From Oscillospiraceae bacterium (lineage in GTDB: Bacteria; Bacillota_A; Clostridia; Oscillospirales; Oscillospiraceae), in contig CADADE010000025.1 in the NCBI GenBank assembly GCA_902786615.1, positions 1 through 36,172 on the forward strand: a DNA stretch of 36,172 nucleotides, written 5' to 3'. Shown here in pieces: positions 272 to 25,375 of this stretch; position 1 is the first letter of the stretch, and every line of letters starts with the position of its first letter. Below the pieces are notes generated by a model. That model did not search any database, was not told the DNA's origin, and saw nothing but the letters and a program-made list of their open reading frames with translations. The position numbers were made by a program, and so were the translations under genes.

Positions 272-327
272 GAGCCGGGCTTGGAGGATATATTGATAAT
301 ACTTCCTGATACCTGGACAAGCTTTCG

Positions 328-387
328 GCGGGTCGATCTGGGGATCGCCCCCTAAGATTTTGCATGCATATACGTTTTGAAACAAGC
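328..387 (-). repeat. 60-bp dispersed repeat, copy 1
   Basis: Read on the minus strand, this 60-bp segment matches 21709..21768 (plus strand) at 57 of 60 positions. It includes the shared core CGTATATGCATGCAAAATC and the GATCCCCAGATCGACCCGC half-palindrome. The two copies are about 21 kb apart in opposite orientation. Copy 2 is the left part of a larger element with terminal inverted repeats; here only this end is evident. It lies directly upstream of sigK. Confidence 0.7.
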
Positions 388-445
388 TCATTTTTTGCGA
401 ATAGGGACATTCCGTGCCGCAATAGGATGAACGGAGGTGATGTAT

Positions 446-7080: not shown

Positions 7081-7100
7081 TCATTTGCAGCTGTACCTAA

Positions 7101-7148
7101 AGAACTGCCCGGGAAGCTCTGTTTGAGTGACCCGGGCAGTTCTTTTTT
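7101..7148 (+). terminator. Strong intrinsic terminator after infB
   Basis: A perfect 13-bp stem, AGAACTGCCCGGG (7101-7113) with CCCGGGCAGTTCT (7131-7143), has a 17-nt loop and ends in TTTTTT. It lies 20 bp after infB and ends the operon; rbfA, usually next, is not here. Confidence 0.92.
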
Positions 7149-7191
7149 GGATCATCACGAAACTTTAAGGAGTGAAAGTATAGTCGGCATT

Positions 7192-7581: not shown

Positions 7582-10500
7582 ATGAAAGGAAAACGAGGTC
7601 TGAGGAGGCTTTTGGGGCTTCTGCTGTGCATGATCACGGTGTTCGCCGTGACCATGCCCGCCGCGGCCTGCGCGCAGGAGACGGAACAGAAGCTCGTGCG
7701 CGTCGGCTGGTATGATTCGTCCTTCTGTTATTGGGACGAGTTCGGAAGGCGCTGCGGCGTCGATGTTGAATATCAGGAAAAAATCTCCGCCTATACGGGC
7801 TGGACCTATGAGTATGTGGAGGACAGCTGGTCAAACCTGTTCCAGATGCTGAAGGACGGGAAGATCGACCTGCTCAGCGACGTCTCCTATAAGCCGGAGA
7901 GGACGGAATTCATGTCCTTTCCCGATCTGCCCATGGGCTCGGAGGCCTATTATATCTACATAGACGCGGAAAACCGGGAGATCACGGCGGATAATCCCGC
8001 CTCCTTCAACGGAAAGCGGATCGGCGTCAACAGGGGCAGCATCCAGGCGGGCTTCCTCAGGGACTGGGCGGAAAGAAACAAGCTGGATATCGATATCGTC
8101 CCGCTGGATGCGAGCGAGGCGGAGTCCCTGGACATGCTCACGCGGGGTGAGATCGACGGCTACACGACCGTCTACTCCTTCGGCTCCGAGCAGAAGATCG
8201 TCCCCGTCGCCAGAGTCGGCGCGTCGGATTATTACTACGCCGTCAACAAGGCCCGGCCGGATCTGCTGGCCGAGCTCAACATGGCGCTGTCCGGAATCCA
8301 GGATGAAGACCCCGATTTCAGACACAGAGTAAGCGAAAACAACAATTACAACACCAATACCAACATCTTCCTGACCCCCGGACAGGAGGATTGGCTCAAG
8401 GCGCACGGCCCGGTCCGCATCGGCTATCGGGACGATTCGCTGCCGTTCTGCGACGCGGACAAGACGACGGGAGAGCTTTCCGGCGCGCTGGGGGATTTCC
8501 TGACGCATGCGGCGAACCATCTGCGGCGCTACGACATTCAGTTCGAGGCGTTTCCCTATGCCTCGACCGAGGCGGCGCTGAACGCGATGAAGGTCGGGGA
8601 GATCGACTGCGTGTTTCCCGTCAACCTGGGCTCCCATGACGCGGCAAAAATGAATGTGCGGGTGACGGCGCCGGTCATGAAGACCGAGATAAACGCCGTG
8701 ATGCGCGCTTCCGATCAGCAGAGTCTTTCGCGCGACAGCAAAATCAGCTTTGCGATTCATGCCGACGATCTGAACATTGAAACCTTCATCATGGAAAAAT
8801 ACCCCGCGTCCGTGCGGAAAAGCTTTTCCGACGGAAAGGCCTGCTTTGGGGCGGTCGCGTCCGGAGACGCCGACTGCATCCTTGTCAGCGCCTACAGAAT
8901 GCCCGCCGCGGAGGAGATCATGACAAAATCGCGTCTCTTCTCCGTGCCGACCGGCGAGACGATGCCCCTCTCCTTCGCGGTAAACAGGGCGGACAGAGAG
9001 CTGTATTTCATCCTCAACAAAACGGCTGTCACGACAGACAGCGATGATATGGACTCGGCGCTGGCCTCCTATATGCAAGCCGAGCAGAAGGCTTCGCTTG
9101 CGCGGGTTTTGAAGGACAACTGGCTTGCCGTCATGCTTGTGATGCTTGCGGTGTTCACGGTCATCGTGATCCTGCTGCTGCAGAAGCTGAAGGCGGAGCG
9201 GACCGCGAACGAGCAGAAGCGCCTGCTGAAGGAGGCGGAGAAAATCGCGGAGCTGAAGCAGACCATCGCTTCGCTCCTGGACAACATGCCCGGCATGAAC
9301 TTCACCAAGGACGCCCAAACCGGCGTGTATCTCGCGTGCAACCGCGATTTTGCGCAGTATGCGCACAAGGAAAAGCCGGAGGATGTGATCGGACTTACCG
9401 CCGATGAAATCTTTGACGCCGAAACCGCCGCCAAGTTCGACGAGGAGGACAGGATCGCCCTTTCCATGGATACGCCGTACATCTTTGTCGAGGATGTTCC
9501 GGACGCCAACGGAAACCGGCACCAGCTCCAGACCACCAAGCTCAAATACACCGACGCCGCGGGCCGTCAGTGCGTGCTTGGCATCTGCCAGGACATGACG
9601 GATATGGTGCGCATCCGGCGCGAGATCGCCACGTCCAAGGAGGCCTATGAGAAGGCCCGGAGAACCGGCGTCATCTATAGCCACATTGCCCAGACGCTCG
9701 CGCGCAGCTACACGGATCTGTACTATGTGAACACGGATACCGAGGAATACATCGAATACCGGACAAACGATGAAGGCAGCGCGCTGACCGAGGCCCGGCG
9801 TGGCTGGCACTTCTTTGAGGAATGCCAGATCGAGGTCAATGAGTATGTCTATCCCGACGACCGCGCCAAGTTCTCGAAGGCGCTGGAGCGCAAAACGCTC
9901 CTCGCGGCGCTGGAGCACAACAATACGTTCATGATGCATTACCGCCTGATTTCGGAGCATGGGCCGACCTACGTCAGCATGAAGGTCTCGCGCATGCAGG
10001 ACGACGAGCGCTACATCATCATCGGCATTGCGGATGTGGATGAAGAGGTGAAGCAGCGCCTCGCGGTGGAACGGGTGAAGGAGGAGCAGCTTGCCTACGC
10101 CCGCCTCAGGGCGCTGGCCGGCGAGTTCCTGAGCGTCTATTCCATCGTCCCGGAGACCGGAGCCTACCGCGAGTACAGCGCGACAAAAAGCTACCAGGAG
10201 CTGGCCAGTCCAAGGGAGGGGACGGATTTCTTCACCGATTCCAGGGAGCAGATCCGCATCGTGATCCATCCGGAGGATCAGAAACGCCTCCTGGATGTGC
10301 TGACAAAGGAAAACGTACTCGCGGAAATCAAACGTCACGGTATCTTTTCTATCAGCTATCGCCTCATGCTGGAGGGGAAGCCGCGCTATGTGCAGCTCCG
10401 GGCAGCCGTCGTCCGGGAAAAGGAGGGCGAGCGCCTGGTCGTCGGCGTCAGCGATATCGACGCGCATGTCCGGCAGGAGGAGGAATATGAGAGACGCCTC

Positions 10501-10989
10501 GCACAGGTACAGCGGGAAGCAAACCTGGACGTGCTGACAGGCGTCAAGAACAGACATGCTTACCTCAAAACGGAAGAACGGCTGGATTCCCAGATCGCGG
10601 AGCACCGCGTGTCGGACTTTGCCATCGTGATCCTGGATGTGAACGATTTGAAAAAGGTCAACGATACAGCCGGACACAAGGCGGGGGACCAGTACCTGCG
10701 GGACGCCTGCCGCATCATCTGCGGCATTTTCAAGCGCAGCCCCGTCTTCCGCATCGGCGGGGACGAATTTGTCGCCGTTATTCAGGGCGCGGATTATGAG
10801 TGCATCGAAGAGCTGATGGGAAAAATGAAGGATCACAACACCAAAGCGCTTCGTACAGGCGGGATCGTCATTGCCTGCGGCATGTCAAAATACGAAGGCG
10901 ACGCCGGCGTGGCGCTCGTGTTCGACCGCGCGGACCAGAAAATGTATGAGAACAAGAGCGACCTGAAGGAAAAACGTGTTGTCAGCTGA
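7582..10989 (+). CDS. Dual solute-binding-domain, PAS-linked diguanylate cyclase
   Basis: A 1135-aa membrane sensor predicted to make c-di-GMP from GTP. A signal/anchor segment (8-32) leads to two extracellular SBP_bac_3-like domains (about 38-255, starting VRVGWYDSS; and 276-495, starting VRIGYRDDSLPFC). One membrane span follows (514-534, LAVMLVMLAVFTVIVILLL), then a coiled linker. The inside has a PAS domain (about 562-680), two homologous PAS-like modules (about 699-830 and 839-965; each with a YRL...YV strand pair and a closing IIIGIADVD-type strand) and a GGDEF domain (about 974-1130). The catalytic motif RIGGDEF (1059-1063) is intact. The RxxD inhibitory site before it is absent. First gene of the operon; GGGGGG lies 11 nt before ATG 7582. 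The ligand is unknown. Confidence 0.88.
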   Translation: MKGKRGLRRLLGLLLCMITVFAVTMPAAACAQETEQKLVRVGWYDSSFCYWDEFGRRCGVDVEYQEKISAYTGWTYEYVEDSWSNLFQMLKDGKIDLLSDVSYKPERTEFMSFPDLPMGSEAYYIYIDAENREITADNPASFNGKRIGVNRGSIQAGFLRDWAERNKLDIDIVPLDASEAESLDMLTRGEIDGYTTVYSFGSEQKIVPVARVGASDYYYAVNKARPDLLAELNMALSGIQDEDPDFRHRVSENNNYNTNTNIFLTPGQEDWLKAHGPVRIGYRDDSLPFCDADKTTGELSGALGDFLTHAANHLRRYDIQFEAFPYASTEAALNAMKVGEIDCVFPVNLGSHDAAKMNVRVTAPVMKTEINAVMRASDQQSLSRDSKISFAIHADDLNIETFIMEKYPASVRKSFSDGKACFGAVASGDADCILVSAYRMPAAEEIMTKSRLFSVPTGETMPLSFAVNRADRELYFILNKTAVTTDSDDMDSALASYMQAEQKASLARVLKDNWLAVMLVMLAVFTVIVILLLQKLKAERTANEQKRLLKEAEKIAELKQTIASLLDNMPGMNFTKDAQTGVYLACNRDFAQYAHKEKPEDVIGLTADEIFDAETAAKFDEEDRIALSMDTPYIFVEDVPDANGNRHQLQTTKLKYTDAAGRQCVLGICQDMTDMVRIRREIATSKEAYEKARRTGVIYSHIAQTLARSYTDLYYVNTDTEEYIEYRTNDEGSALTEARRGWHFFEECQIEVNEYVYPDDRAKFSKALERKTLLAALEHNNTFMMHYRLISEHGPTYVSMKVSRMQDDERYIIIGIADVDEEVKQRLAVERVKEEQLAYARLRALAGEFLSVYSIVPETGAYREYSATKSYQELASPREGTDFFTDSREQIRIVIHPEDQKRLLDVLTKENVLAEIKRHGIFSISYRLMLEGKPRYVQLRAAVVREKEGERLVVGVSDIDAHVRQEEEYERRLAQVQREANLDVLTGVKNRHAYLKTEERLDSQIAEHRVSDFAIVILDVNDLKKVNDTAGHKAGDQYLRDACRIICGIFKRSPVFRIGGDEFVAVIQGADYECIEELMGKMKDHNTKALRTGGIVIACGMSKYEGDAGVALVFDRADQKMYENKSDLKEKRVVS

Positions 10990-11002
10990 AAGGCAGAGGC
11001 TC

Positions 11003-11052
11003 CCGTTCCGGGCGGCCGGCGCAGCTTCTGACATCGCGCCGACCCGGAACGG
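11003..11052 (+). other. Intergenic hairpin within the c-di-GMP operon
   Basis: CCGTTCCGGG (11003-11012) pairs perfectly with CCCGGAACGG (11043-11052), and GC-rich inner sequence (CCGGCGC / GCGCCG) extends the pairing. No T-run follows. It could act as an RNA stability or processing structure separating the first gene from the rest, or as a leaky terminator. Confidence 0.5.
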
Positions 11053-11097
11053 CTGAAAACCGGAGAACGCAGAGAGCTTGAAGGGGTGAGCAGGGAA

Positions 11098-14031
11098 ATG
11101 GGTTCAGGAAACACTGGATTTTATCGCATGCGAAAGGCTGTTGTGTTACTGATTCTTGTTGCGGCGGTATTTTCCGCGTGGACGCCTTTCGACGTTCATG
11201 CGCAGAAAAGCAGAAAGACCGTGCGCGTCGGATGGTACGAGTCTGCCTTCCACCATACGGATCAGTTCGGGAGACGCTCCGGCTACGGGTACGAATATCA
11301 GCAGCGGATCGCCACCTTTACCGGCTGGGACTATGAATATGTGGAGGGCAGCTGGTCCGAGCTTCTGGAAATGCTGATGGCGGGCGAGATCGACCTGCTC
11401 AGCGACGTGTCCTATACCGAAGCGCGCGCGGAGAAGATCCTCTATTCGGCTCTGCGCATGGGCTCGGAGGATTACCATGTCTTTATCTCTCCCGACAATA
11501 CGCAGATCAGGCCGGATGATTTTTCCACGCTTGACGGAAAGCTTGTCGGCGTCAACAAAAACAGCATACAGGAGCAGCTTTTTGTTCAGTGGGCGAAGGA
11601 TTATGACGTTCACCCCGAAGTCATGGAGCTGACGGGCAAAACGCCGGAGCTGCTGGACATGCTCAAACGCGGCGAGATCGACGCGCTTGTGACGCTGGAT
11701 ACCTACGGAAACTCCGCCGATGTGCTGCCCATCTGCAAGGTGGGCTTTGCGGAGTCCTTCTTCGGCGTGAACAAAAACCGGCCCGACATCAAGCGCGAGC
11801 TGGACGCCGCCATGAACCGCATCATGGAGGACAACCGGAATTTCAACGAGGAAATGACGGCAAAGTTCCACAAGGCCAGCGGACTCACCGGCTTTCTGAC
11901 GCAGGATGAGCTGGCCTGGTTCCAGGCGCACGGCACGATCCGCGTGGGGTATATGACGGACTATCTCCCGTTTTGCGGCCTGAATGAGCAGACACAGGCG
12001 ATCGAGGGCGCGCTGTCGGATATCCTGGCCTTTGCGAAAACCTGCGAAAAGAATGCGGTTTTGAGCTTTGAAACCCATGGCTATCCCTCTACGGAGGAGG
12101 GGGTGCAGGCGCTTTTGCGCGGGGAGATCGACTGCCTGTTCCCGGTCAACCTCAGCTCCTACGACGGGGAACAGCTTGGCGTAATCATAACAGACCCATA
12201 TGTTTCCACGGAGCTGTACGCGGCGGTACGCACGGCGGACCGGCAGGGAATATCGCCGGAGCAGCCCATGACGGTCGCGCTCACCCGCGGCAATCTGGAC
12301 TTTGAGACCTTCCTGAAGGATTATTTCCCCGACTGGAAGATCCGGTATTATGACGAAAGAGAGGCCGGCTTCAAGGCCGTTTCCGCGGGCGAGGCAGACT
12401 GCGTGCTGATCAACAATTATCGTCTCAACCGTGTGAAGGAGCTGTGCGAGGGATACGGCCTTTCTCCGCTTGCAACCGGACGCAATGCGGACTTTTCCTT
12501 TGCCGTAAGGCGGGACGACGACTGCCTGTATTCCATTCTCAACAAAATCAGCCGTCTCATCCCGGCGTCGTTGATCCAATCTTCCCTTACGGCCAATTCC
12601 TATTTTGCCGAGCGCGTGTCCGTCGCCCGCTTTCTGCGGGACAATGCGGGCGTCGTGTTTATCACCGTGTCGGCGCTCTCGCTCTTTATCATCGGGCTTC
12701 TTCTGCGAATCATACGCACAGAACGCAGAGAGAACCAGGAGCGAAAGCTCATCTCCGCTGTCGAGACGGACGCCCTGACGGGGCTTTATAACCGAAACTT
12801 CTTCTTTGAATATGCCAGCCGCCTGTATCAGAGCGATCCGACACGCAAGGCGGACGCGGTCGTCATGAACATCGAACAGTTCCACACCATCAACGAGCTG
12901 CACGGCAGGGACTACGGCGACCGGGTGCTCAAAGCCTTCGGCGAAGAGATACGCCGCTTCTTGAGCCAGACGAAGGGGATCGGCGGGCGCTTTGAGGGGG
13001 ACCGTTTTGATATTTACTGTGTGCCGCAGGATAATTACCGCGCGCTGCTGCACCGTTTTCAGGATGAACTGAGAAAGCGCTTTCCCAATGCCAATATTCG
13101 CCTCAGGATGGGCGTCGCGCCCTGGCAGGAGGGGATCGAGCCGATGCGCCTGTTTGACCGGGCAAGGACGGCCAGCAACGCTGTGCGCGCAACCGAAAGG
13201 CATCTCATGATCTACGACAAGAAGATGCGCATTCGGGAGGAACTGAGCCAGCGCCTGCTCAATGACTTCGGGCGCGCGCTGGAGGAGCGGGAGTTCAAGG
13301 TCTATTATCAGCCCAAGTATGATATTCAAAGCGAGCCGCCCGTTTTCAGAAGCGCGGAGGCGCTGATCCGCTGGCAGCATCCCGAGCTCGGCATGATCGC
13401 GCCCGGCGATTTCATCCCCCTGTTTGAGGCCAACGGACAGATCAGCGAGATCGACAAATACGTGTGGCGTGAGACGATCCGCCAGATCGCCGAGTGGCGG
13501 GAGCGGTACGGGATCACGATCCCCGTATCAGTGAATCTCTCCCGTGTGGATGCGCTGGACCCCACGCTGGAGCAAACGCTGGACGATATGATGAACGCCT
13601 TCTCCCTGCACCCGCAGTACCTCCATCTGGAGGTGACGGAGTCCGCCTATACCGAGGACGCCGAGCAGCTCGGAAGCGTTATTCAGCGGCTGCGGGCCAA
13701 GGGCTATAGAATCGAGATGGATGATTTCGGCTCCGGCTACTCTTCGCTGAATATGCTCTCCTCCGTTCCGATCGACGTTCTGAAAATGGATATGGCCTTC
13801 GTGAAGAATATCGAGCAGAACGAAAAGGATATCCAGCTGGTAGAGCTGATCCTCAACATAGGCAATAAACTGAAAATCCCGGTCGTCGCGGAGGGCGTGG
13901 AAACCAGAACCCAGGTGCAGCTCCTGAAAAAAATGGGCTGCGACCTTGTGCAGGGCTACTATTTCGCCCGGCCCCTTCCGGCAGACGATTTCGAAGCGCG
14001 TATCATAAAAAACGAGCTTACCGCAAAATAG
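11098..14031 (+). CDS. Dual solute-binding-domain GGDEF-EAL protein, predicted c-di-GMP phosphodiesterase (paralog A)
   Basis: About 977 aa. A signal/anchor segment (about 11-33) precedes two extracellular SBP_bac_3-like domains (from TVRVGWYESAF, and from TIRVGYMTDYLPFC). A membrane span lies at about 519-539, then GGDEF and EAL domains. The GGDEF site reads EGDRF (633-637), so cyclase activity is unlikely; the domain may bind GTP allosterically. The EAL domain keeps its catalytic set: E754-A-L, VNLSR, LEVTES, D875-D876 in MDDFGSGYSSL, LKMD, E932 in AEGVET, and QGYYF. It should therefore hydrolyse c-di-GMP to pGpG. ATG 11098 is preferred (AAGGGG 11 nt upstream); GTG 11086 overlaps that site. 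It lies 108 bp after the first operon gene. Confidence 0.88.
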   Translation: MGSGNTGFYRMRKAVVLLILVAAVFSAWTPFDVHAQKSRKTVRVGWYESAFHHTDQFGRRSGYGYEYQQRIATFTGWDYEYVEGSWSELLEMLMAGEIDLLSDVSYTEARAEKILYSALRMGSEDYHVFISPDNTQIRPDDFSTLDGKLVGVNKNSIQEQLFVQWAKDYDVHPEVMELTGKTPELLDMLKRGEIDALVTLDTYGNSADVLPICKVGFAESFFGVNKNRPDIKRELDAAMNRIMEDNRNFNEEMTAKFHKASGLTGFLTQDELAWFQAHGTIRVGYMTDYLPFCGLNEQTQAIEGALSDILAFAKTCEKNAVLSFETHGYPSTEEGVQALLRGEIDCLFPVNLSSYDGEQLGVIITDPYVSTELYAAVRTADRQGISPEQPMTVALTRGNLDFETFLKDYFPDWKIRYYDEREAGFKAVSAGEADCVLINNYRLNRVKELCEGYGLSPLATGRNADFSFAVRRDDDCLYSILNKISRLIPASLIQSSLTANSYFAERVSVARFLRDNAGVVFITVSALSLFIIGLLLRIIRTERRENQERKLISAVETDALTGLYNRNFFFEYASRLYQSDPTRKADAVVMNIEQFHTINELHGRDYGDRVLKAFGEEIRRFLSQTKGIGGRFEGDRFDIYCVPQDNYRALLHRFQDELRKRFPNANIRLRMGVAPWQEGIEPMRLFDRARTASNAVRATERHLMIYDKKMRIREELSQRLLNDFGRALEEREFKVYYQPKYDIQSEPPVFRSAEALIRWQHPELGMIAPGDFIPLFEANGQISEIDKYVWRETIRQIAEWRERYGITIPVSVNLSRVDALDPTLEQTLDDMMNAFSLHPQYLHLEVTESAYTEDAEQLGSVIQRLRAKGYRIEMDDFGSGYSSLNMLSSVPIDVLKMDMAFVKNIEQNEKDIQLVELILNIGNKLKIPVVAEGVETRTQVQLLKKMGCDLVQGYYFARPLPADDFEARIIKNELTAK

Positions 14032-14070
14032 AGAGATAAAACAGCCAAAACCTGAACAGCGGAGGAAAGG

Positions 14071-17019
14071 TTGAAAATGATGCGTAACACAGTCCGATCT
14101 GAGCTTATGAAACGACTTGCGGCGCTGCTGCTCTGTTTTCTTCTTGGCGTATCCGTTTTGCCTGTGAGCGCTGCTCTGGCAGCCGACACGCAGAAGATCG
14201 TACGTGTCGGCTGGTATGATTCTTCCTATAATAACATTGACTCGTTCGGACGGCGCTCCGGCTATGCCTACGAGTACCAGCTGAAAATCGCGGCTTTTAC
14301 CGGCTGGTCGTATGAGTATGTGACCGGAAGCTGGTCGGAGCTTTTGAGCATGCTGATCAAAGGCGATATCGACCTGATGAGCGACGTCTCCTATACCCCG
14401 GAGCGCGCGGAAAAGATGCTGTTCCCGGAGCTGCCCATGGGGGCGGAGGAATACTATCTTTTTGTTTCCCCCCATAACCGCAGGATCAGCTCGGCGGATA
14501 TCTCCACGCTCAACGGGAAGCGGATCGGCGTGAACAAGGACAGCATACAGGCGGTCTTCTATCAGGAGTGGGCGAAGCGAAACGGCGTCGAGGCGGAGCT
14601 TGTCGAGCTGACAAACTCCGAGGACAAATCGCTGAGCATGCTGGAGACCGGCGAGCTGGACGCCTATGTCACCGTCGATTCCTTTACGGACCCGAGCCGT
14701 GCGGTGCCGGTGGCCAAGGTCGGCTCCTCCGATTTCTTCTTTGCCGTCAACAAAACCCGGCCCGATCTGCTGAAGGATCTGAACGGCGCGTTGAGCCGCA
14801 TTCAGGACGAAAACCGCTACTTTAATCAGCAGATGTTTGAACGATACATGAAAACAGCCGGGGCCAACGCCTTCCTCACGGCGGATGAGCAGAGCTGGCT
14901 TGAGGAGCACGGAACGATCCGGGTGGGCTATCAGGACAATTATCTGGCCTTCTGCGCCGCGGATAAGACGAGCGGGGAGCTGACAGGCGCCATGAAGGAT
15001 TATCTGGCCATCGCCTCCGACTGTCTGGAAAACGCGCGCCTTTCCTTCTCGGCCAAGGCTTACCCCACCATGGAGGACGCCGTCAGGGCGATGAAAAACG
15101 GGGAGGTAGACTGCGTTTTCCCGGCCAACCTCAGCGGATACGACGGGGAAAAGCTCGGCATCGTCATGACGCCGCCCCTGATCCGCACGGATATCTACGC
15201 GGTGGTGCGCGAGTCGGACCTGAACACCTTCACCAACAGAGAGCATGTGATCGTAGCCGTAAACGAAGGAAATCCAAATTACGATACCTTCCTGCTTGAC
15301 CATTACCCGAACTGGCAAAGGGTGTACTATACCAGCACCGCGGACTGCCTGAAAGCGGTGTCCGAGCGGGTGGCGGACTGCGTTCTGATCAGCAGTTATC
15401 GCTATAACAATATATACAGACAATGTGAAAAGAATCATCTGACAACGCTGCCCACCGGCCTGGAGATGGATTACTGCCTCACGGTCGGCAGGGGCGAAAA
15501 GGAGCTGTATTCCATCCTGACAAAGATGGTCAGCCTGGTCCCGACCACCACCTTCAACTCGGCGTTGTCCTACTATATTACAGAGGACGCAAAGCTCAGC
15601 CTGGGCGAATTGATCGAGGACAATCTGACCGGCGTCATGACCGGCATTTCCGTTGTGGTGCTCGCGATCCTGCTTCTGCTGCTGCGGAGCGTGCGGGCGG
15701 AGAAGAGGGCAAAGCAGCTCATTTCCGCGACGGAGACGGACAGCCTGAGCGGCCTGTACAACCGGGACTATTTCTTCCAGTACGCAAACCGCATCTTTCA
15801 TGAACACCCCGATCAGCCGATGGACGCCATCGTCCTGAATATCGAGCAGTTTCATTCCATCAACGCGCTCAACGGCAGAGACTTCGGCGATCAGATCCTC
15901 CGCGTTCTCGGCAGCGAGCTGCACACGATAGCGGACGAAGCCGGCGGGATCGCGGGCAGGTTCGGGGCGGATCGCTTTGACTGCTACTGCCGTCATATGG
16001 AGGATTACCGGGCGGTATTTGACCGTCTGCAGAGCAAGGTGGACGCCATGTCGCCGAACGCCAGCGTGTTTTTGCGTATGGGCGTGGCACAGTGGCAGCC
16101 GGGCGTCGAGCCCGTCCAGCTTTTCGACAGGGCAAGGATCGCGTGCACACAGGCGCGCGGACACTTCAAGGAGCATCTGATCGTCTTTGATGAGAAGGTG
16201 CGTGAGCGCGAGCTGCTTGACCAGCGCCTGCTCAGCGATCTGCGCCGCGCCCTGGATAATTACGAGCTTGAGGTTCACTATCAGCCCAAATTTGACGTCG
16301 GGGCCGAACCGCCGAAACTTGTGAGCGCGGAGGCGCTGGTGCGCTGGCGGCACCCCGAGCTCGGCATGATCACGCCGGACGTCTTTATCCCGCTTTTTGA
16401 GCGCTGCGGAAAGATCAGCGAGGTCGACAAATATGTCTGGTCTCAGGCGGCGAGGCAGATTGCCCGCTGGCAGGCCCGCTTCGGGAGGACGATCCCCATC
16501 TCGGTCAATCTGTCGCGCGTGGATGTGTTCGACCCGGCACTGGAAAAGAACCTGGAGGATATCGTCCGCCAGAATGGGCTGGAGCGTGACGCGCTGAAGC
16601 TTGAGCTCACGGAGTCGGCCTATACGGAAAACGCGGAACAGGTGATCCGGGTCGTGGAGGGCCTGCGCGATAAAGGCTACACGGTGGAGATGGACGACTT
16701 CGGCACGGGCTATTCCTCACTGAACATGCTCTCTGCCATGCCGGTGGACGTGCTCAAGATGGACAGGACCTTTATCCGGAACATGGAGAATAATGAGCGG
16801 GACGTTCAGCTGGTGGCGCTGATCCTCGGCATCGCAAAGAACCTGAAAATCCCGGTCATTGCCGAGGGCGTGGAGACGGAGACCCAGCTTCAGATCCTGA
16901 AAAATCTGGGCTGCACGCTTGTGCAGGGATATTATCTTTCCCGTCCGCTGCACCCCGCCGAGTTTGAAACGGAGCTTCTCAACAATTCGGAGCTCAAAGC
17001 GAGATATAATCAGAGGTGA
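14071..17019 (+). CDS. Dual solute-binding-domain GGDEF-EAL protein, predicted c-di-GMP phosphodiesterase (paralog B)
   Basis: 982 aa if TTG 14071 is used (GGAGG 5 nt upstream); ATG 14077 is an almost equal choice. The architecture is the same as the previous gene and collinear residue for residue: signal segment, two SBP_bac_3-like domains (VRVGWYDSSYNNID..., then IRVGYQDNYLAFC), a membrane span near 525-547, GGDEF, EAL. The GGDEF site is GADRF (632-636), so it is inactive by motif. The EAL residues are intact: E754, VNLSR, LELTES, D875-D876 (MDDFGTGYSSL), LKMD and E932 (AEGVET). It is the closest paralog of the preceding gene, presumably a tandem duplicate. The gap to the previous gene is 39 bp. 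Confidence 0.88.
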   Translation: MKMMRNTVRSELMKRLAALLLCFLLGVSVLPVSAALAADTQKIVRVGWYDSSYNNIDSFGRRSGYAYEYQLKIAAFTGWSYEYVTGSWSELLSMLIKGDIDLMSDVSYTPERAEKMLFPELPMGAEEYYLFVSPHNRRISSADISTLNGKRIGVNKDSIQAVFYQEWAKRNGVEAELVELTNSEDKSLSMLETGELDAYVTVDSFTDPSRAVPVAKVGSSDFFFAVNKTRPDLLKDLNGALSRIQDENRYFNQQMFERYMKTAGANAFLTADEQSWLEEHGTIRVGYQDNYLAFCAADKTSGELTGAMKDYLAIASDCLENARLSFSAKAYPTMEDAVRAMKNGEVDCVFPANLSGYDGEKLGIVMTPPLIRTDIYAVVRESDLNTFTNREHVIVAVNEGNPNYDTFLLDHYPNWQRVYYTSTADCLKAVSERVADCVLISSYRYNNIYRQCEKNHLTTLPTGLEMDYCLTVGRGEKELYSILTKMVSLVPTTTFNSALSYYITEDAKLSLGELIEDNLTGVMTGISVVVLAILLLLLRSVRAEKRAKQLISATETDSLSGLYNRDYFFQYANRIFHEHPDQPMDAIVLNIEQFHSINALNGRDFGDQILRVLGSELHTIADEAGGIAGRFGADRFDCYCRHMEDYRAVFDRLQSKVDAMSPNASVFLRMGVAQWQPGVEPVQLFDRARIACTQARGHFKEHLIVFDEKVRERELLDQRLLSDLRRALDNYELEVHYQPKFDVGAEPPKLVSAEALVRWRHPELGMITPDVFIPLFERCGKISEVDKYVWSQAARQIARWQARFGRTIPISVNLSRVDVFDPALEKNLEDIVRQNGLERDALKLELTESAYTENAEQVIRVVEGLRDKGYTVEMDDFGTGYSSLNMLSAMPVDVLKMDRTFIRNMENNERDVQLVALILGIAKNLKIPVIAEGVETETQLQILKNLGCTLVQGYYLSRPLHPAEFETELLNNSELKARYNQR

Positions 17020-17024
17020 CGCGA

Positions 17025-18644: not shown

Positions 18645-18670
18645 AGATTACCCGAGCTGGAGGCGGAAAG

Positions 18671-21589
18671 ATGAGACCAACCAAACATGTTTATTATGCT
18701 GCGCGCACCATGGCCATACTCGCGCTCGCTTTTCTGGCTGCCCTTGCCCTGCCGAGCGGGGCGTTTGCGCGGGAGAGCGAAAAAACCGTGCGCGTCGGGT
18801 GGTATGAATCGCCGTTCAATATCACGGACGAGCTGGGGCGGCGCTCCGGCTACGCCTATGATTATCAGCAGAAGATCGCCGCCTGCACCGGCTGGACGTA
18901 CGAATATGTGACCGGGAGCTGGCCCGAGCTGATGCAGATGCTTGAGGACGGCAGAATCGACTTGATGAGCGACGTCTCCTATACGGATGAGCGGGCGGAA
19001 AAAATGCTGTTCTCCGCGCAGCCGATGGGGACGGAGGATTACTATCTCTTTACGGCGCCCAATAATAAAGAGATCACGCCGGAGGACTTTTCCACCTTCA
19101 ACGGCAAAAAGGTCGGCGCGAACAGGGGCAGCGTTCAGATTTCCTATTTCCGGGATTGGGCGGAGGCAAACGGCGTCCAGGCGGAGATCGTGGAGATGAC
19201 CGGCTCGGAGGAGTACAACATCATCCAGCTCAGGCTTGGCGTCATCGACCTCTATGCCTCGCTTGACGGTCTGCATAAAGCCGGGGACGCGGTCCCCGCG
19301 TGCAAAATCGGTTCCTCCGATGTCTTCTTTGCGGTCAGCAAATCACGCCCTGAGCTTCTCAGCGAGCTGAATAACGCCATGTCCAGGATTCTGGACGAAA
19401 ACCCGCTTTATAACCGCATACTGTATTCCAAATACCTGGAAACCGCAAAGATCAGCCACTACCTCAGCGCGGAGGAGAGCGCCTGGCTTACTGACCACGG
19501 GCCGATCCGGGTCGGCTATCGGGACAATTATCTCGCCTTCTGCGCCAAAGATCAGAAAACAGGGAAGCTGACAGGCGCGCTGAAGGATTTTCTGGACGCC
19601 GCCTCCGACTGCCTTGAAAACGCGCATCTGGAATTTGAGCCTGTTGCTTATTCCACCGCCGGCGGCGCTATGGAAGCGCTGAAAAACGGCGAGGTGGACT
19701 GCGTATTTCCCGTAAACCTCACGGACTACGACGGGGAAACGCAGGGCGTTTTCATCACCCCCGCCCTGATGCACACGGACATGGCTGCGGTCATCCGCGA
19801 GGCGGATGTGGACTCCTTCGCAAAGAAGGAACGGGTGGCGGTCGCCGTCAACGTTGGAAATCCCAATTATGAAATGTTCCTGCTGGATCATTTCCCACAG
19901 TGGCGCAAGGTCTTTTTCGAGGATACGCCGAGCTGCCTGCGCGCCATTGCGGATGAACAGGCGGACTGCCTGCTGATCAGCAGCTATCGCTTCAACAACA
20001 TCGCCGCGATCTGCGAAAGGTATCACCTGACGACGATTTCAACCGGCGTTGAAATGGACGACTGTCTGGCTGTGAATCGGGAGGATACGCTCCTGTATTC
20101 CATTCTGAGCAAAATTATCGGGACCGTGCCGCCTTCGACCATCAGCGCCTCGCTCACAAAATATTACGCGGAGGATGCGAAAACCACCGTCGTCGATCTG
20201 TTCCGGAGAAACCTTGTCGTTTTGCTGGGCGTGTTTGCTTTGCTGGGCGGCGTGTTCCTGTTTCTGCTCCTGCGGGAAAAGCGCGCTGAAAAACGAGCCG
20301 ACGAAAGCCTCCGCCTGATCTCGGAAACGGAGATCGACAAGCGTACGGGACTGTACAACAGGGAATACTTTTACGCCTATGCCGAACGAATGTACCGTGA
20401 AAAGCCTGAGCGAGCGATGGACGCCGTCGTGATGAGCGTCGATCAGCTTTCGGCTGTCGCGGTCATGTGCGGACAGCGCTTTGAGGACGATATCCTGCAC
20501 ACGCTGGGAACGGGACTGCAGAGCTTTGTAAAAGAACATGGCGGGATTGCCGGCAGGACGGATACAAATCGCTTTGCCGTTTTCTGCCCGCCTGTGGAGG
20601 ACTATGACAGGCTGTATCGCAGCCTGCAGGGGAGCCTGGACATTCTCTCGCCGGATATGAGCCTGCGGCTGAAAATGGGCGTCGCGCCGTGGCGCGCGGA
20701 TACAGATCCCGTGCGCATGCTGGAGCTTGCGCGCATGGCCTGCCGCAGAGCGCGCCGGATGGGGGAAGAGCGCATGATCGTCGTCGACGAGAAGCTTCTG
20801 GAAAGAGAGGCTTACGACAAGCGCCTTCTGCATGATCTCAAGCGCGCCGTGGAGGACATGGAGTTTGAGGTTTACTATCAGCCGAGTTTTGATATCCGGG
20901 GCGAGACGCCGAAGCTCGTCGGCGCGGAGGCGCTGGTGCGCTGGCGGCACCCGGAGCTGGGCCTGATCGCGTCGGGCGACTTTGTGCAGCTTTTGGAACG
21001 CAGCGGAGAGATCGGCACGGTGGATCAATACGTCTGGAAACAAGCGATCCGGCAGATCGTGGACTGGAAGGAAAAATACGGCGTAACGCTTCCGGTGTCC
21101 GTCAACCTATCGAGTCAGGATCTCTTCGAGCCTGCGCTGAAGCGCACCCTGGGCGAAGCGATCAGGGAAAACGGACTTTCATACGGCGATCTGAAGCTCG
21201 AAATCAGAGAATCCGTGTGCGCGGAAAACAAGTTCCAGATCTTTGACATTGTGGGAAATCTGCGAAGAGCGGGCTACGAGATCCGGATAGACAATTTCGG
21301 CTCGGAAAACGGCGCGCTCAGCGTGCTGTCGTCCATCACCGTCGACGGTCTGAAGCTGGACAGAAGCGCGATCTCCGAGATGGAGCAGGATGAAAAGGCC
21401 TCGCGCCTTGTCGATCTGATCCTGGAGACTGCGGGATATCTGAAGCTTCCCGTCATCGCCGTGGGCGTGGAAACAGAGAGTCAGCTGCGCCTTTTGAAGA
21501 AAAAGGGCTGTGCCTTCGCACAGGGGCATTATTTCTCCCGCCCGCTTCCGGTGCAGGAGTTTGAAGCGCGCTTTCTAAGCCGGAGCTGA
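18671..21589 (+). CDS. Dual solute-binding-domain protein with degenerate GGDEF and EAL domains (paralog C)
   Basis: 972 aa with the same layout as paralogs A and B: signal segment (about 10-33), SBP_bac_3-like domain 1 (TVRVGWYESPFN), domain 2 (PIRVGYRDNYLAFC), one membrane span near 516-535, GGDEF, EAL. Both output domains are damaged. The GGDEF site reads DTNRF (631-635). In the EAL domain E753 is kept, but the DDFG pair is D874-N875, loop 6 is SENGAL instead of SGYSSL, and AEGVET has become AVGVET (V931 replaces a catalytic Glu). It is probably not an enzyme; it may bind c-di-GMP or regulate its paralogs. GGAGG is 7 nt before ATG 18671. Last gene of the operon, 26 bp after the previous one. 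Confidence 0.87.
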   Translation: MRPTKHVYYAARTMAILALAFLAALALPSGAFARESEKTVRVGWYESPFNITDELGRRSGYAYDYQQKIAACTGWTYEYVTGSWPELMQMLEDGRIDLMSDVSYTDERAEKMLFSAQPMGTEDYYLFTAPNNKEITPEDFSTFNGKKVGANRGSVQISYFRDWAEANGVQAEIVEMTGSEEYNIIQLRLGVIDLYASLDGLHKAGDAVPACKIGSSDVFFAVSKSRPELLSELNNAMSRILDENPLYNRILYSKYLETAKISHYLSAEESAWLTDHGPIRVGYRDNYLAFCAKDQKTGKLTGALKDFLDAASDCLENAHLEFEPVAYSTAGGAMEALKNGEVDCVFPVNLTDYDGETQGVFITPALMHTDMAAVIREADVDSFAKKERVAVAVNVGNPNYEMFLLDHFPQWRKVFFEDTPSCLRAIADEQADCLLISSYRFNNIAAICERYHLTTISTGVEMDDCLAVNREDTLLYSILSKIIGTVPPSTISASLTKYYAEDAKTTVVDLFRRNLVVLLGVFALLGGVFLFLLLREKRAEKRADESLRLISETEIDKRTGLYNREYFYAYAERMYREKPERAMDAVVMSVDQLSAVAVMCGQRFEDDILHTLGTGLQSFVKEHGGIAGRTDTNRFAVFCPPVEDYDRLYRSLQGSLDILSPDMSLRLKMGVAPWRADTDPVRMLELARMACRRARRMGEERMIVVDEKLLEREAYDKRLLHDLKRAVEDMEFEVYYQPSFDIRGETPKLVGAEALVRWRHPELGLIASGDFVQLLERSGEIGTVDQYVWKQAIRQIVDWKEKYGVTLPVSVNLSSQDLFEPALKRTLGEAIRENGLSYGDLKLEIRESVCAENKFQIFDIVGNLRRAGYEIRIDNFGSENGALSVLSSITVDGLKLDRSAISEMEQDEKASRLVDLILETAGYLKLPVIAVGVETESQLRLLKKKGCAFAQGHYFSRPLPVQEFEARFLSRS

Positions 21590-21625
21590 GCCGGTTCAAA
21601 AACGATGGCAAAACAGCGCTGGGGC

Positions 21626-21654
21626 TTGACAGGCGGGCGGACAGGCAGCATAAT
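21626..21654 (+). promoter_or_regulatory. Promoter-like sequence with no clear gene
   Basis: TTGACA (21626-21631), 17-bp spacer, CATAAT (21649-21654). It reads into the repeat element at 21709 and the coding remnant at 21892. It could be the relic promoter of that broken gene. Confidence 0.4.
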
Positions 21655-21708
21655 TCAGCCGATTCAATCAGCAAACAGCTTGAAAAGACGCGGAGCAGAC
21701 CGGCCCTG

Positions 21709-21863
21709 GCTTGTCTCAAAACGTATATGCATGCAAAATCGTAGGGGTCGATCCCCAGATCGACCCGCAGAAAACCGCAGAATGCTGCAAAACGGCGGGC
21801 CGATGAGGGCATCGGCCCCTACGTCGTTCCTTTTTATGCAGGGATTGCCTTATTTTGAGACAA
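21709..21863. repeat. MITE-like element containing dispersed repeat copy 2
   Basis: Perfect 11-bp terminal inverted repeats TTGTCTCAAAA (21711-21721) and TTTTGAGACAA (21853-21863) bound a 153-bp noncoding element. Inside are GTAGGGGTCGAT (21741-21752) and ATCGGCCCCTAC (21811-21822), 11 of 12 complementary, plus the small palindromes GGGTCGAT/ATCGACCC and GGCCGAT/ATCGGCC. Its first 60 bp match 328-387 in inverted orientation (57/60). Confidence 0.7.
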
Positions 21864-21891
21864 TCCCCGGTTTTTCTCTGCCGTCCGCGTA

Positions 21892-22050
21892 ATGCCCGAC
21901 GGCACGATCCGCGAGGTCTATTTCTACTGCGTGGATATCTCCGAATTTACCGCCAATAAGCTCGGCGACCGGGGCAGCCTTTCCGCGAAGGGCATTGTCA
22001 CAAACGTGCAGGATTTCATCGTAACGCTCTGTACCGGCCTGGGGATCTGA
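21892..22050 (+). pseudogene. 3' remnant of an unidentified gene
   Basis: The frame is open from 21859, directly after the repeat element, to TGA at 22048-22050. From ATG 21892 it gives 52 residues that look like real protein: MPDGTIREVYFYCVDISEF near the start and VTNVQDFIVTLCTGLGI at the end. There is no ribosome binding site before the ATG, and the readable frame begins at the element boundary. A gene whose 5' part was lost or displaced by the repeat is the simplest reading. I do not recognise the family. The rest of 21590-22110 shows only the features listed. Confidence 0.35.
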
Positions 22051-22110
22051 GCGACAGAGGACGTCCGCCGGCGCTTTTATGGAAACTGCAAAAAGTATGC
22101 AATAAAATTC

Positions 22111-22139
22111 TTGCCTATGAGGGCAGGTCATGGTATAAT
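22111..22139 (+). promoter_or_regulatory. Promoter of the multi-span GGDEF-EAL-PAS gene
   Basis: TTGCCT (22111-22116), 17-bp spacer, TATAAT (22134-22139), with TGG before the -10 (extended -10). It is 38 bp upstream of ATG 22178, so this gene is transcribed separately from the five-gene operon. Confidence 0.75.
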
Positions 22140-22177
22140 TTTGACAAAAACAGAAGGAAAAAGAGGGGAGTGATTTC

Positions 22178-25100
22178 ATGAGCTATTCCAGTACAAGCAT
22201 ACTTGCGCTGGCCATTCATTTCCTGATCAATCACAACCTGCTGAAAAAGGACATGAGCAAGGATGCGATTCCGGCGCAGAAGTCCTATCGTGCCCTCCTT
22301 TTTTCAATCACGGCCTACTATGTGACGGACGCAATCTGGGGCCTGCTCTATGAGCGGCATTGGCTTGGCCTGACCTTTCTGGACACGCAGCTTTATTTTG
22401 TCGCCATGGCGTTCACGGTCCTGATGTGGACAAAATTTGCCGTCGATTATCTTCGCGAAAACGGGAGCTTTGGGAAAATCCTGCTTGTTACGGGCCAATT
22501 GATCTTCGTGTTTCAGCTGATCCTTGTTCTCGCTACTTTTGTCAGGCCGATCATGTTCTCCTTTGACGAGAAAGGCGTCTATCACGCGGGAATCGGGCGC
22601 TATATTACGCTGGCCGCCCAGATCGTGATGTTTGTGATGACCGCGATCTACGCCGCTTCCGTTTCCCAAAAGAGTACCGGCATGAAGAAGGCCCGCTATC
22701 GGATCATCGGCATGTTCAGCGTGACGATGGCTGTCTTTGACGTGCTGCAGGCCTGCTATTCGCTGCTGCCGATGTACGCGATCGGCTGCCTGCTCGGCAC
22801 CTGCCTGCTCAACAGCTTCGTGCTGGAAAACGAGAAGGAGGAGTACAGGGACGATCTGGAAGAGAAGCTGCGGGAGAGCATTGAAAAGGGAAACTATTAT
22901 GATCTTCTGACCGGCTTGCCGAGCATGACCACTTTCTTCGAGCTGGCGGAAGCCGAAAAGAAGGAAATCCTGAAACGCGGCGGCAAACCCGCCTATCTGT
23001 ATCTGGATTTCAACGGAATGAAATTTTATAACCGGAAAAATGGCTTCGCGGAGGGCGACAAGCTGCTGCAATCGTTTGCAAAGCTGCTCGTTCGCACCTT
23101 CGGCAATGACTGCTGCGGCCGTATAGGCGGAGACCATTTTGCGGCAATCACCGTGGCGCAGGGGCTGGAGGACAGACTGCGCCAGCTTCTGCGGGATAAC
23201 CAGGATATCAACGACGGCAGATCCATCCCGGTTCACATCGGCGTCTATGCCGACCAGGATCAGGCAGAGGACGTCAGTCTCGCCTGCGACCGGGCAAAGC
23301 TCGCCTGTAATGAGCTGCACGGGGCCTATGCGTCCTGCTATCAGTATTACAAACAGGAGCTGAGCGATGACGCGGAGAGGAGACAGTACATTGTCGAGAA
23401 CATCGACAGGGCGATCGCCGGGAAATGGATTCAGGTTTACTACCAGCCGATCATCCGCGCGGTAAACGGAAAGGTATGCGATGAGGAGGCGCTCGCGCGC
23501 TGGATCGATCCGACCCGCGGCTTCCTGTCTCCGGCAAGCTTTATTCCCGCGCTGGAGGAATCGGGCCTCATTTACAAGCTGGATCTGTATGTGCTGGAAC
23601 AGGTTCTGGACAATATCAAAACGCTGGAAGCGGAGGGGCTTTATATCGTCCCGCATTCCATCAACCTGTCACGTTCGGATTTTGACTCCTGCGATATCGT
23701 GGAGGAGATCCGCAGGCGCGTGGACGAAGCGGGCGTCAGCCGGGACAAAATCACAATAGAAATCACGGAGAGCATCATCGGCGGCGATTTTGACTTTATC
23801 AAGGAAAAGGTCACACAGTTTCAGCGGCTTGGCTTTCCCGTGTGGATGGACGACTTCGGCAGCGGCTATTCCTCGCTTGATGTGCTTCAAAGCATACGCT
23901 TCGATCTTCTGAAATTCGATATGAGTTTTATGAAAAAGCTCGATGAAGGCGGGACCGGTAAGGTCATCCTGACGGAGCTGATGCGCATGGCCACCGCGCT
24001 GGGGCTGGAAACGATCTGCGAAGGGGTCGAGACGGAAGCACATGTGCGTTTCCTGCAGGAAATCGGCTGCTCAAAGCTGCAGGGCTATTACTTTGAAAAA
24101 CCGAAGCCCTTCTCCTATGGCCTCGAATGGTTCAAAAAGAACAGGGAAAGCCTCGAAAATCCTGCGGAGGCCGCCTATTTCGAGTCAATCGGGCGGGTGA
24201 ATCTCTATGACCTCAGCGTGATTGCGCAGGGGGATGAAAACTCGCTGCACAACACCTTCAACACACTGCCCATGGGAATCATCGAAATCCAGGGCGATAC
24301 TGCCCGTTTCGTGCGGAGCAATCAATCCTACCGCGATTTTATGAAGCGCTCCTTCGGGATCGAGCTTTCAAGCCTTGGTTCCGGCTTTGCCAAATTTGAC
24401 GGGGCGTTCATGAACAACATCGTGAAAACCTGCTGCGAGCAGGGCCTGCGCTCCTTCTATGATGAGAAGCTGCCGGACGGCTCTGTCGCGCACTCCCTCG
24501 CGCGGCCGATCGGCACAAACCCCGTCACGGGCAATATGGCGGTCGCGGTCGCCGTCCTGTCCGTCACCAACCCGGACGAGAAGACAAGCTACGCGGACAT
24601 CGCGAGGGCGCTTGCCGCCGACTATTATAATATTTATATCGTGGATCTGGACACGGATCGGTATATCGAGTATTCCACGCTGGCCGGCGGAGACGAGCTG
24701 TCGATAGAACGCCACGGGGAGGATTTCTTTGCCTCGGCCAGGCACGATACGTTGACCCGGATCTACGAGAAGGATCAGGAGGCTTTCCTGTCCCGCTTCA
24801 CGAAAGAAAACATCCTGCGGGAGCTGAAGGAGCAGGGCGTGTTTACCTCCACCTACCGCCTGGTGGACAACGGCACGCCGACCTATGTCAACATGAAGAT
24901 CACGCGCATGCGGGAGCGCGGAAACCGCATTATACTCGGCGTAAGCGTCGTAGACTCTTACATGAAGCAGAAGGAACAGCTCGCCGAGATCGAAAAAGAA
25001 CGGGACGCGATGATCCGGGTCATGGCGCTGTCGGACGGATATATGGGTGTGATTACCGTAGACCTCGAAACGGGACACTATGTCGAAGTCAGCTCGACAG

Positions 25101-25375
25101 ATGATTTTGACAGCCTCGGAGCTGCCAAGCAGGGGAAGGACTTCTTCCGCCAGTCCGCCATTGACGCCGCCAAATACTTCCACCCGGACGATCAGCAGCG
25201 CTTTATCGAGGCGTTTACACAGGAGAACGTCATGCGGGAAATCCACAGGAACGGATGCTTCCGGATTCAATACCGGCTCATGATCAACGGCGAGCCAAGG
25301 CCGACCGCGCTGAAAGCCGCGCTGTTCCGGGACAGGAGCGGCGAAAAGATGGTCGTCGGCATCCGGGCGCTGTAG
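22178..25375 (+). CDS. Multi-span membrane GGDEF-EAL protein with C-terminal PAS-like modules, predicted c-di-GMP phosphodiesterase
   Basis: 1065 aa. The N-terminal 215 residues contain about six or seven hydrophobic spans (near 5-20, 40-58, 66-86, 97-118, 140-162, 172-212), resembling a 7TM-type sensor. The GGDEF domain (about 230-375) reads RIGGDHF (317-321): the key Glu is His, so cyclase activity is unlikely. The EAL domain (about 400-650) looks fully active: E437-A-L, SINLSR, IEITES, MDDFGSGYSSLDVL, LKFD, CEGVET, LQGYYF. A PAS-like region (about 690-790) and two tandem PAS-like modules (about 806-935 and 945-1065) follow. These last two resemble the two in the cyclase at 7582. AGAGGGGAG precedes ATG 22178. 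PAS modules after the EAL domain are an unusual order. Confidence 0.88.
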   Translation: MSYSSTSILALAIHFLINHNLLKKDMSKDAIPAQKSYRALLFSITAYYVTDAIWGLLYERHWLGLTFLDTQLYFVAMAFTVLMWTKFAVDYLRENGSFGKILLVTGQLIFVFQLILVLATFVRPIMFSFDEKGVYHAGIGRYITLAAQIVMFVMTAIYAASVSQKSTGMKKARYRIIGMFSVTMAVFDVLQACYSLLPMYAIGCLLGTCLLNSFVLENEKEEYRDDLEEKLRESIEKGNYYDLLTGLPSMTTFFELAEAEKKEILKRGGKPAYLYLDFNGMKFYNRKNGFAEGDKLLQSFAKLLVRTFGNDCCGRIGGDHFAAITVAQGLEDRLRQLLRDNQDINDGRSIPVHIGVYADQDQAEDVSLACDRAKLACNELHGAYASCYQYYKQELSDDAERRQYIVENIDRAIAGKWIQVYYQPIIRAVNGKVCDEEALARWIDPTRGFLSPASFIPALEESGLIYKLDLYVLEQVLDNIKTLEAEGLYIVPHSINLSRSDFDSCDIVEEIRRRVDEAGVSRDKITIEITESIIGGDFDFIKEKVTQFQRLGFPVWMDDFGSGYSSLDVLQSIRFDLLKFDMSFMKKLDEGGTGKVILTELMRMATALGLETICEGVETEAHVRFLQEIGCSKLQGYYFEKPKPFSYGLEWFKKNRESLENPAEAAYFESIGRVNLYDLSVIAQGDENSLHNTFNTLPMGIIEIQGDTARFVRSNQSYRDFMKRSFGIELSSLGSGFAKFDGAFMNNIVKTCCEQGLRSFYDEKLPDGSVAHSLARPIGTNPVTGNMAVAVAVLSVTNPDEKTSYADIARALAADYYNIYIVDLDTDRYIEYSTLAGGDELSIERHGEDFFASARHDTLTRIYEKDQEAFLSRFTKENILRELKEQGVFTSTYRLVDNGTPTYVNMKITRMRERGNRIILGVSVVDSYMKQKEQLAEIEKERDAMIRVMALSDGYMGVITVDLETGHYVEVSSTDDFDSLGAAKQGKDFFRQSAIDAAKYFHPDDQQRFIEAFTQENVMREIHRNGCFRIQYRLMINGEPRPTALKAALFRDRSGEKMVVGIRAL

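What the first reader, a model, noticed from the sequence alone, without database searches (positions are those of the whole stretch)
7582..25375. 18-kb island of six consecutive c-di-GMP turnover genes with extracellular solute-binding sensors
Five genes in one apparent operon (7582-21589) plus a sixth with its own promoter all carry GGDEF and/or EAL domains. Four have two tandem periplasmic-binding-protein-like domains outside the cell. By motif there are two cyclases, three phosphodiesterases and one likely pseudoenzyme. Such dense co-location in a clostridial genome suggests a dedicated circuit in which several related ligands push one c-di-GMP pool up or down. No PilZ protein or c-di-GMP riboswitch is visible in the window.
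Basis: partly seen in the sequence, partly recalled or inferred. Interest (0 to 1): 0.75.

Follow-up and report, generated by a model that had tools for sequence, protein, structure and literature searches.

The report
Amino-acid-sensing c-di-GMP gene cluster
A gut bacterium carries, side by side, genes that look able to make and break the signal molecule c-di-GMP under the control of outside sensors built like amino-acid-binding proteins; related bacteria often keep a core trio of one maker, one breaker and one sensor that usually has no working enzyme.

Summary
Six consecutive genes (A-F, 7582-25375) encode GGDEF and/or EAL proteins; A, B, C and E have tandem SBP_bac_3 ectodomains; by motif A and D are cyclases, B, C and F phosphodiesterases, E a dead one. 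The island is not one fixed unit. Its conserved core is C-D-E: a D-type cyclase adjoins 15 of 17 C-clade and 18 of 19 E-clade genes. A-B precede the core in two of four close relatives. F is a recent arrival: 98% identical (dS 0.067) in a relative whose nusA/infB dS is about 0.49. In 11 of 12 loci with C, D and E, E is non-catalytic, while its ectodomain stays as constrained as C's. The first sensor domain keeps an alpha-amino-acid-type pocket (Arg 59 of 59, Asp 53 of 59), and an amino-acid-permease/GGDEF/EAL fusion lies on the same contig as C-D-E in 4 of 4 close relatives. Of eight locus-bearing genomes, GEMM-I was found in none, PilZ in two, MshEN pilus ATPases in six. Best reading: an amino-acid-responsive, antagonistic c-di-GMP module, perhaps acting on type IV pili. 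Activity, ligand and output are inferred.

The parts
7099..7150 (+). Perfect 15-nt inverted repeat (7099-7113 / 7131-7145) followed by a T run: probable terminator after infB, so the island starts outside that operon
7582..10989 (+). Gene A: tandem SBP ectodomain - TM-like stretch - PAS domains - GGDEF; predicted diguanylate cyclase, GGDEF intact, no RxxD I-site at the usual spacing
11086..14031 (+). Gene B: tandem SBP - degenerate GGDEF - EAL; predicted phosphodiesterase
14071..17019 (+). Gene C: tandem SBP - degenerate GGDEF - EAL; predicted phosphodiesterase; conserved core gene
17016..18644 (+). Gene D: dCache-HAMP-GGDEF; predicted diguanylate cyclase, no I-site at the usual spacing; conserved core gene, overlaps C by 4 bases
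18671..21589 (+). Gene E (listed ORF 18512-21589; likely start ATG 18671): tandem SBP - degenerate GGDEF - catalytically dead EAL; predicted non-catalytic receptor
21885..22052 (+). Coding-like remnant between E and F; 98% identical over 168 bases to sequence upstream of F in G001, where about 110 extra bases separate it from F
22111..22139 (+). Extended -10 promoter-like site upstream of F (TTGCCT-17-TATAAT, TG before the second hexamer)
   Evidence: consensus match only
22178..25375 (+). Gene F: integral-membrane-like N-terminus - degenerate GGDEF - EAL - C-terminal PAS-like repeats that by eye resemble those of A; predicted phosphodiesterase; recently acquired

Best explanation
The island is an amino-acid-responsive c-di-GMP control module. 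Its conserved core is an antagonistic pair, phosphodiesterase C (tandem Venus-flytrap sensor) and cyclase D (dCache sensor), plus a third tandem-flytrap receptor, E, that has usually lost catalysis but keeps its sensor. Shown by sequence: domain content, motif status, conserved order, differing constraint on E. Inferred: SBP1 binds an alpha-amino acid or close derivative; ligand closure in the flytrap pair moves the TM helices and switches the cytoplasmic enzyme (as proposed for CdgH); E acts as a modulatory partner, most simply by pairing with C (or B) through the ectodomain/TM region, or as a c-di-GMP-binding pseudo-enzyme; A and B add further inputs of opposite sign; F is a recent recruit. 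Neither cyclase shows a product-inhibition motif, so the paired phosphodiesterases may set the ceiling. The likeliest output is the type IV pilus through MshEN-type PilB; the link between island and pilus is inferred, not shown.
Against: No biochemical data. Asp163 is Tyr in gene A of the window, L002 and L008, so A may bind something else. L021 has C without D, L017 an E-clade gene without D, L015 a triple with intact E, L031 and L034 a non-catalytic E without C; D in L031 is only fragments in two frames. L009 and L042 have C-D and no E. The loci were gathered with C as query and many are close kin, so the counts are neither unbiased nor independent. MshEN was not found in G007 and G008, which carry the locus. 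No permease fusion was seen in the window, and in G005, G006 and G008 it is on another contig. Genomes hold 34-67 GGDEF matches, so the island may be a small part of a large network. The relatives are draft, mostly metagenome, assemblies.
Confidence: 0.5

Rival explanations
1. The cluster is a product of tandem duplication of generic c-di-GMP genes, kept by chance or co-transcription; each gene acts on its own input and there is no dedicated circuit.
For: The tandem-SBP regions of A, B, C and E are paralogous (46-56% identity to C); genomes are rich in GGDEF genes (34-67 matches); A-B and F come and go.
Against: C, D and E keep order across sequences with C down to 60% and D down to 49% identity and in differing surroundings; D has a different sensor from C and E; dN/dS well below 1.
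Confidence: 0.25
2. E is simply decaying: a redundant phosphodiesterase losing its catalytic half, with no partner function.
For: The EAL region of E has about three times the dN/dS of that of C; the DDFG loop residue is N, S, K, R or N in five orthologs; in L033 the ORF ends right after the TM-like stretch.
Against: Ectodomain constraint equals that of C; ORFs intact in the five full-length orthologs; the output-less form has a narrow length range (665-690 aa) over seven loci, and 60 of the 120 best database matches to it are 611-683 aa with an SBP and no GGDEF/EAL domain listed, two of them marked partial; EAL dN/dS is still 0.21.
Confidence: 0.2
3. C and D form a local signalling pair whose c-di-GMP does not mix with the global pool; the target is a nearby membrane complex, not PilB.
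For: Close pairing of a cyclase and a phosphodiesterase in genomes with 34-67 GGDEF matches; hybrid kinases lie downstream in L001 and L003.
Against: I saw no local effector gene conserved next to the block; the permease fusion carries enzyme domains, not a known receptor.
Confidence: 0.2
4. The ligand is not a free amino acid but an opine, Amadori product, small peptide or other SBP_bac_3 ligand.
For: The fold list also holds opine- and deoxyfructosyl-amino-acid-binding proteins (OccJ, SocA).
Against: These are themselves amino-acid derivatives; Arg72 and Asp163 match the alpha-carboxylate/alpha-amine pair (roles recalled); amino acid permease fusions nearby.
Confidence: 0.25

Closest known systems
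CdgH of Vibrio cholerae (tandem PBPb diguanylate cyclase; PMC5431781, passages seen)
   Different: CdgH is a single cyclase; here the same kind of sensor pair is joined to phosphodiesterases (B, C), a dead enzyme (E) and a PAS-containing cyclase (A) in one cluster
RmcA of Pseudomonas aeruginosa (SBP_bac_3 phosphodiesterase; PMC8846402, passages seen)
   Different: RmcA has one SBP and several PAS domains (single SBP recalled); C has two SBPs and no PAS hit
BvgS / EvgS tandem Venus-flytrap sensor kinases
   Same: Best sequence and fold matches for the tandem ectodomain
   Different: Output is GGDEF/EAL, not a hybrid kinase; relatives L038 and L041 do have the kinase output
LapD / FimX type degenerate GGDEF-EAL receptors (recalled)
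   Same: E has degenerate GGDEF and EAL domains
   Different: E keeps the EAL Glu, Asn, Lys and Gln positions; c-di-GMP binding unknown; no partner protease looked for
CbrA-type transceptors (PMC13022988, start of abstract in a search listing only)
   Same: Transporter fused to a signalling output
   Different: The neighbouring fusion couples an amino acid permease to GGDEF/REC/EAL domains

Membership tests
BvgS/EvgS tandem-VFT hybrid kinases | Two tandem Venus-flytrap ectodomains | tested here: met
BvgS/EvgS tandem-VFT hybrid kinases | Histidine kinase and receiver output | tested here: not met
   Pfam finds GGDEF/EAL and no kinase domain in A, B, C, E
CdgH-type tandem-PBP diguanylate cyclase (gene A) | Tandem PBP plus intact GGDEF | tested here: met
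   A adds PAS domains
CdgH-type tandem-PBP diguanylate cyclase (gene A) | L-arginine binding by PBP-I | not testable with these tools
   Needs a binding assay; A has Tyr where 53 of 59 rows have Asp
EAL c-di-GMP phosphodiesterase (B, C, F) | EAL-domain metal and catalytic residues | tested here: met
   Present in 16 of 16 C rows (truncated L016 left out of 17), 3 of 3 B and 4 of 4 F-type rows
EAL c-di-GMP phosphodiesterase (E) | EAL-domain metal and catalytic residues | tested here: not met
   DDFG and EGVE motifs broken in 5 of 5 full-length close orthologs
Diguanylate cyclase (A, D) | Intact GG[DE]EF | tested here: met
   A-type 4 of 4, D 23 of 23, three of these D rows partial
LapD/FimX-like degenerate receptor (E) | Binds c-di-GMP without hydrolysis | not testable with these tools
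   Some EAL residues kept; needs an assay
SBP_bac_3 amino-acid binding (SBP1) | Arg for alpha-carboxylate and Asp for alpha-amine | tested here: met
   Arg72 59 of 59, Asp163 53 of 59; register to AncQR; residue roles recalled; not met for Asp in gene A
MshEN c-di-GMP receptor (PilB in relatives) | Two 24-residue motifs with 5-residue spacer | tested here: met
   6 of 6 PilB-like proteins, each with one deviation at the listed positions. I used three x between the last two Leu (24 letters, recalled); the string printed in PMC11731258 has four
GEMM-I regulon | c-di-GMP-I riboswitch in genome | tested here: not met
   0 of 8 locus-bearing genomes (150 of 220-324 candidates per genome scored); as a working control 121 of 149 genomes of G004's phylum ring. 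Whether all eight belong to that phylum is not told
GEMM-II regulon | c-di-GMP-II riboswitch in genome | tested here: inconclusive
   0 of 8, but nothing rang in the control genomes

The most novel reading that the evidence does not exclude
C-D-E is a three-part receptor-enzyme set: a flytrap phosphodiesterase and an antagonistic cyclase tuned by a flytrap receptor from which catalysis has been removed repeatedly (dead EAL, PAS-only, TM-only), probably by mixed dimers with C, so that the ratio of sensors rather than of enzymes sets c-di-GMP. Together with amino-acid-permease/GGDEF/EAL fusions it would form an amino-acid-sensing c-di-GMP network in gut bacteria in which no GEMM-I riboswitch and few PilZ proteins are found, acting on type IV pili through MshEN.
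Probability: 0.3. Interest if true: 0.65.

Novelty: new variant of a known kind. Interest (0 to 1): 0.47.

Why it matters
Signals for most c-di-GMP enzymes are unknown (general knowledge). A conserved cyclase/phosphodiesterase pair with recognisable amino-acid-type flytraps, found in many gut metagenome assemblies, makes ligand, sign and output directly testable. Loss of catalysis in one sensor in several ways, with the sensor itself kept, would be a new way to tune such a pair. Permease-GGDEF fusions make up 108 of the 120 best listed matches; two literature searches showed me no description of them.

Tried and rejected
Own genome of the window: not held, no file laid, so genome-wide claims rest on relatives G001-G008. 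All six genes as one unit: rejected because of F. Horizontal transfer of the whole block: not supported; A-E dS to G002/G004 is 0.41-0.57 against 0.49-0.50 for nusA/infB, while C and D to G001 (0.24 each) and F (0.067) are low. Window as misassembly at 7.1 kb: similarity to G001, G002 and G004 stops just after infB, and in the stretches fetched (about 18, 3 and 17 kb beyond it) neither the island nor the window's right flank follows; rearrangement, insertion and chimeric contig cannot be told apart. Phage origin of F: no near match in the phage collection. Co-occurrence from equal contig lengths in the protein lists was considered and dropped as too loose. Survey in the order of G004 (197 genomes, about 4 candidates scored in each): 107 have some match, but in the listed rows no full-length relative at 50% or more apart from G004's own three, so distribution is patchy. 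D in the family of G004: 5 of 200 at 1e-80; of the two at 53-54%, one lies beside F- and A-like genes without a tandem-SBP gene nearby (L070), the other near a contig end (L071). A2 used 59 of 63 tandem-SBP rows (L014, L016, L028, L033 left out). One search shows only DNA matches of at least 300 bases and 75%; at least 100 bases.

Full report
What is there. The window is a piece of what looks like a clostridial chromosome: sigma factor, VanY, nusA, an L7Ae-like gene and infB on the left, then genes A-F, then transglutaminase, a weak DUF58 match (below cut-off), MoxR-type AAA, BofA, gyrB and an integrase-core transposase. A 15-nt perfect inverted repeat with a T run follows infB at about 7.1 kb. 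A-E are closely packed: 96 bases between A and B, 39 between B and C, a 4-base overlap of C and D, 26 between D and the probable ATG of E at 18671. For comparisons I cut E at 18668, one codon upstream.

Enzymes. A-type and D proteins have intact GGDEF motifs (4 of 4 and 23 of 23; three of the D rows, L014, L018 and L031, are partial); no RxxD I-site at the usual spacing in D (0 of 23), and none in the four A-type sequences printed. B, C and F have degenerate GGDEF but the EAL metal/catalytic residues (3 of 3 B, 16 of 16 C, 4 of 4 F-type rows). E has lost DDFG and EGVE in 5 of 5 full-length close orthologs: Val replaces the EGVE glutamate in all five, and the DDFG loop has N, S, K, R or N. Six more distant members of the E clade keep the motifs, so the loss is derived.

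Relatives. One scan with C as query gave 48 loci, mostly from rumen and other herbivore gut metagenome assemblies; record labels include Ruminococcaceae, Coriobacteriaceae, Atopobiaceae and Solobacterium, as the depositors wrote. In L001, L002, L003 and L008 the order C-D-E is kept at 84-95% amino-acid identity; A-B precede it in L002 and L008. A tree of 63 tandem-SBP regions puts C and E in separate supported clades, with A and B more distant. A D homolog of at least 45% identity adjoins 15 of 17 C-clade rows (L021 none; L016 ends at the contig edge) and 18 of 19 E-clade rows (L017 none). Since C was the query and many loci are close kin, these counts are not an unbiased survey. A separate search with D in 200 genomes of one family found two homologs of 53-54%; one lies beside F- and A-like genes without a tandem-SBP gene, the other near a contig end.

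The third gene. In seven loci the E-clade protein is a tandem-SBP protein of 665-690 aa (stop-to-stop) with a TM-like stretch and a PAS-like tail, and no GGDEF or EAL by BLAST; of the four scanned with Pfam, PAS passes the cut-off in L007 and L031 and falls just or clearly below it in L005 and L010. In L033 it ends right after the TM-like stretch. In L011, L012 and L022 a tandem-SBP protein of 553-558 aa from another clade lies after C-D on the opposite strand. Of 12 loci with C, D and E, E is non-catalytic in 11; L015 is the exception; C is cut by the contig start in L015 and L033. Without C: L013, L014, L017, L018 and L020 are intact, L031 and L034 are not; L014 and L018 begin at a contig edge, so C may be cut off there; in L031 an F-type gene lies upstream and D is in fragments. 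Mean pairwise dN/dS over five orthologs: C ectodomain 0.140, E ectodomain 0.128, C EAL 0.063, E EAL 0.211. So E keeps its sensor as strictly as C does, while its EAL is relaxed but not free. A protein search with the PAS-tailed form listed, among the best 120 of 2756, 60 proteins of 611-683 aa (the query's own included, two marked partial) and 15 of 544-565 aa with an SBP domain and no GGDEF or EAL domain.

F. F is 98.3% identical (dS 0.067) to a gene in G001 that lies beside IS66 genes, and the long match ends just outside F; a coding-like remnant upstream of F is shared too. nusA/infB dS to G001 is 0.48-0.50. F-like genes do adjoin D/E' in L031, a tandem-SBP cyclase in L036, and A-like and D-like genes in L070, so the partnership recurs, but in the window it is young.

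Output. Among eight locus-bearing genomes: 34-67 GGDEF matches each; PilZ in 2; GEMM-I in 0, although 121 of 149 genomes of G004's phylum ring; GEMM-II 0 without a working control; MshEN in 6, in pilB-like genes. PilT- and PilC-like neighbours in L064, L065, L068 and L069 are named by me from sequence, not by a family search. All six have two motifs and a 5-residue spacer with one deviation each (consensus from PMC11731258, passages). In G002 and G004 a GGDEF gene (316-aa frame) lies beside pilB. PilB2 of Clostridium perfringens binds c-di-GMP (PMC11656802, passages). This makes the type IV pilus the best candidate output; nothing ties it to this island in particular, and G007 and G008 lack an MshEN match.

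Literature. Searches for Venus-flytrap or SBP_bac_3 GGDEF/EAL proteins, permease-GGDEF fusions, rumen c-di-GMP, clustered genes and Oscillospiraceae GGDEF gave CdgH and RmcA as precedents; in the listings, and in passages of three of the papers, I saw nothing on this cluster or on the fusions. Most subscription papers are not in that library.

Verdict. A partly conserved signalling module. The parts are known kinds; the conserved cyclase/phosphodiesterase/non-catalytic-sensor trio and its amino-acid context are the new element.

Noticed in passing
L008:17735-22207 (-); L002:17630-22081 (-); L021:2280-5411 (+): Amino acid permeases fused to GGDEF, REC and EAL domains, or to GGDEF alone; large database family, some members with hybrid-kinase output instead
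   Followed up: partly
L038:1872-5165 (-); L041:1153-4404 (+): The same kind of tandem-SBP sensor attached to hybrid histidine kinases, a BvgS-like layout
   Followed up: partly
window about 7082-7100: Similarity to G001, G002 and G004 stops just after infB; in the stretches fetched there, neither the island nor the window's right flank follows
   Followed up: partly
window 323-395: Short stretch matching dozens of places in G001-G004: a dispersed repeat
   Followed up: no
window 34464-34627: 59-base tandem repeat, 2.8 copies, 99% matches, after gyrB
   Followed up: no
L064 about 6394-6837 (-); L065 about 9098-9541 (+): GGDEF gene with a membrane-like N-terminus (316-aa frame) next to MshEN-type pilB in G004 and G002
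   Followed up: partly
window 35353-36165 (-): Transposase with HTH_21 and integrase core at the right edge, IS3-like by my reading
   Followed up: no
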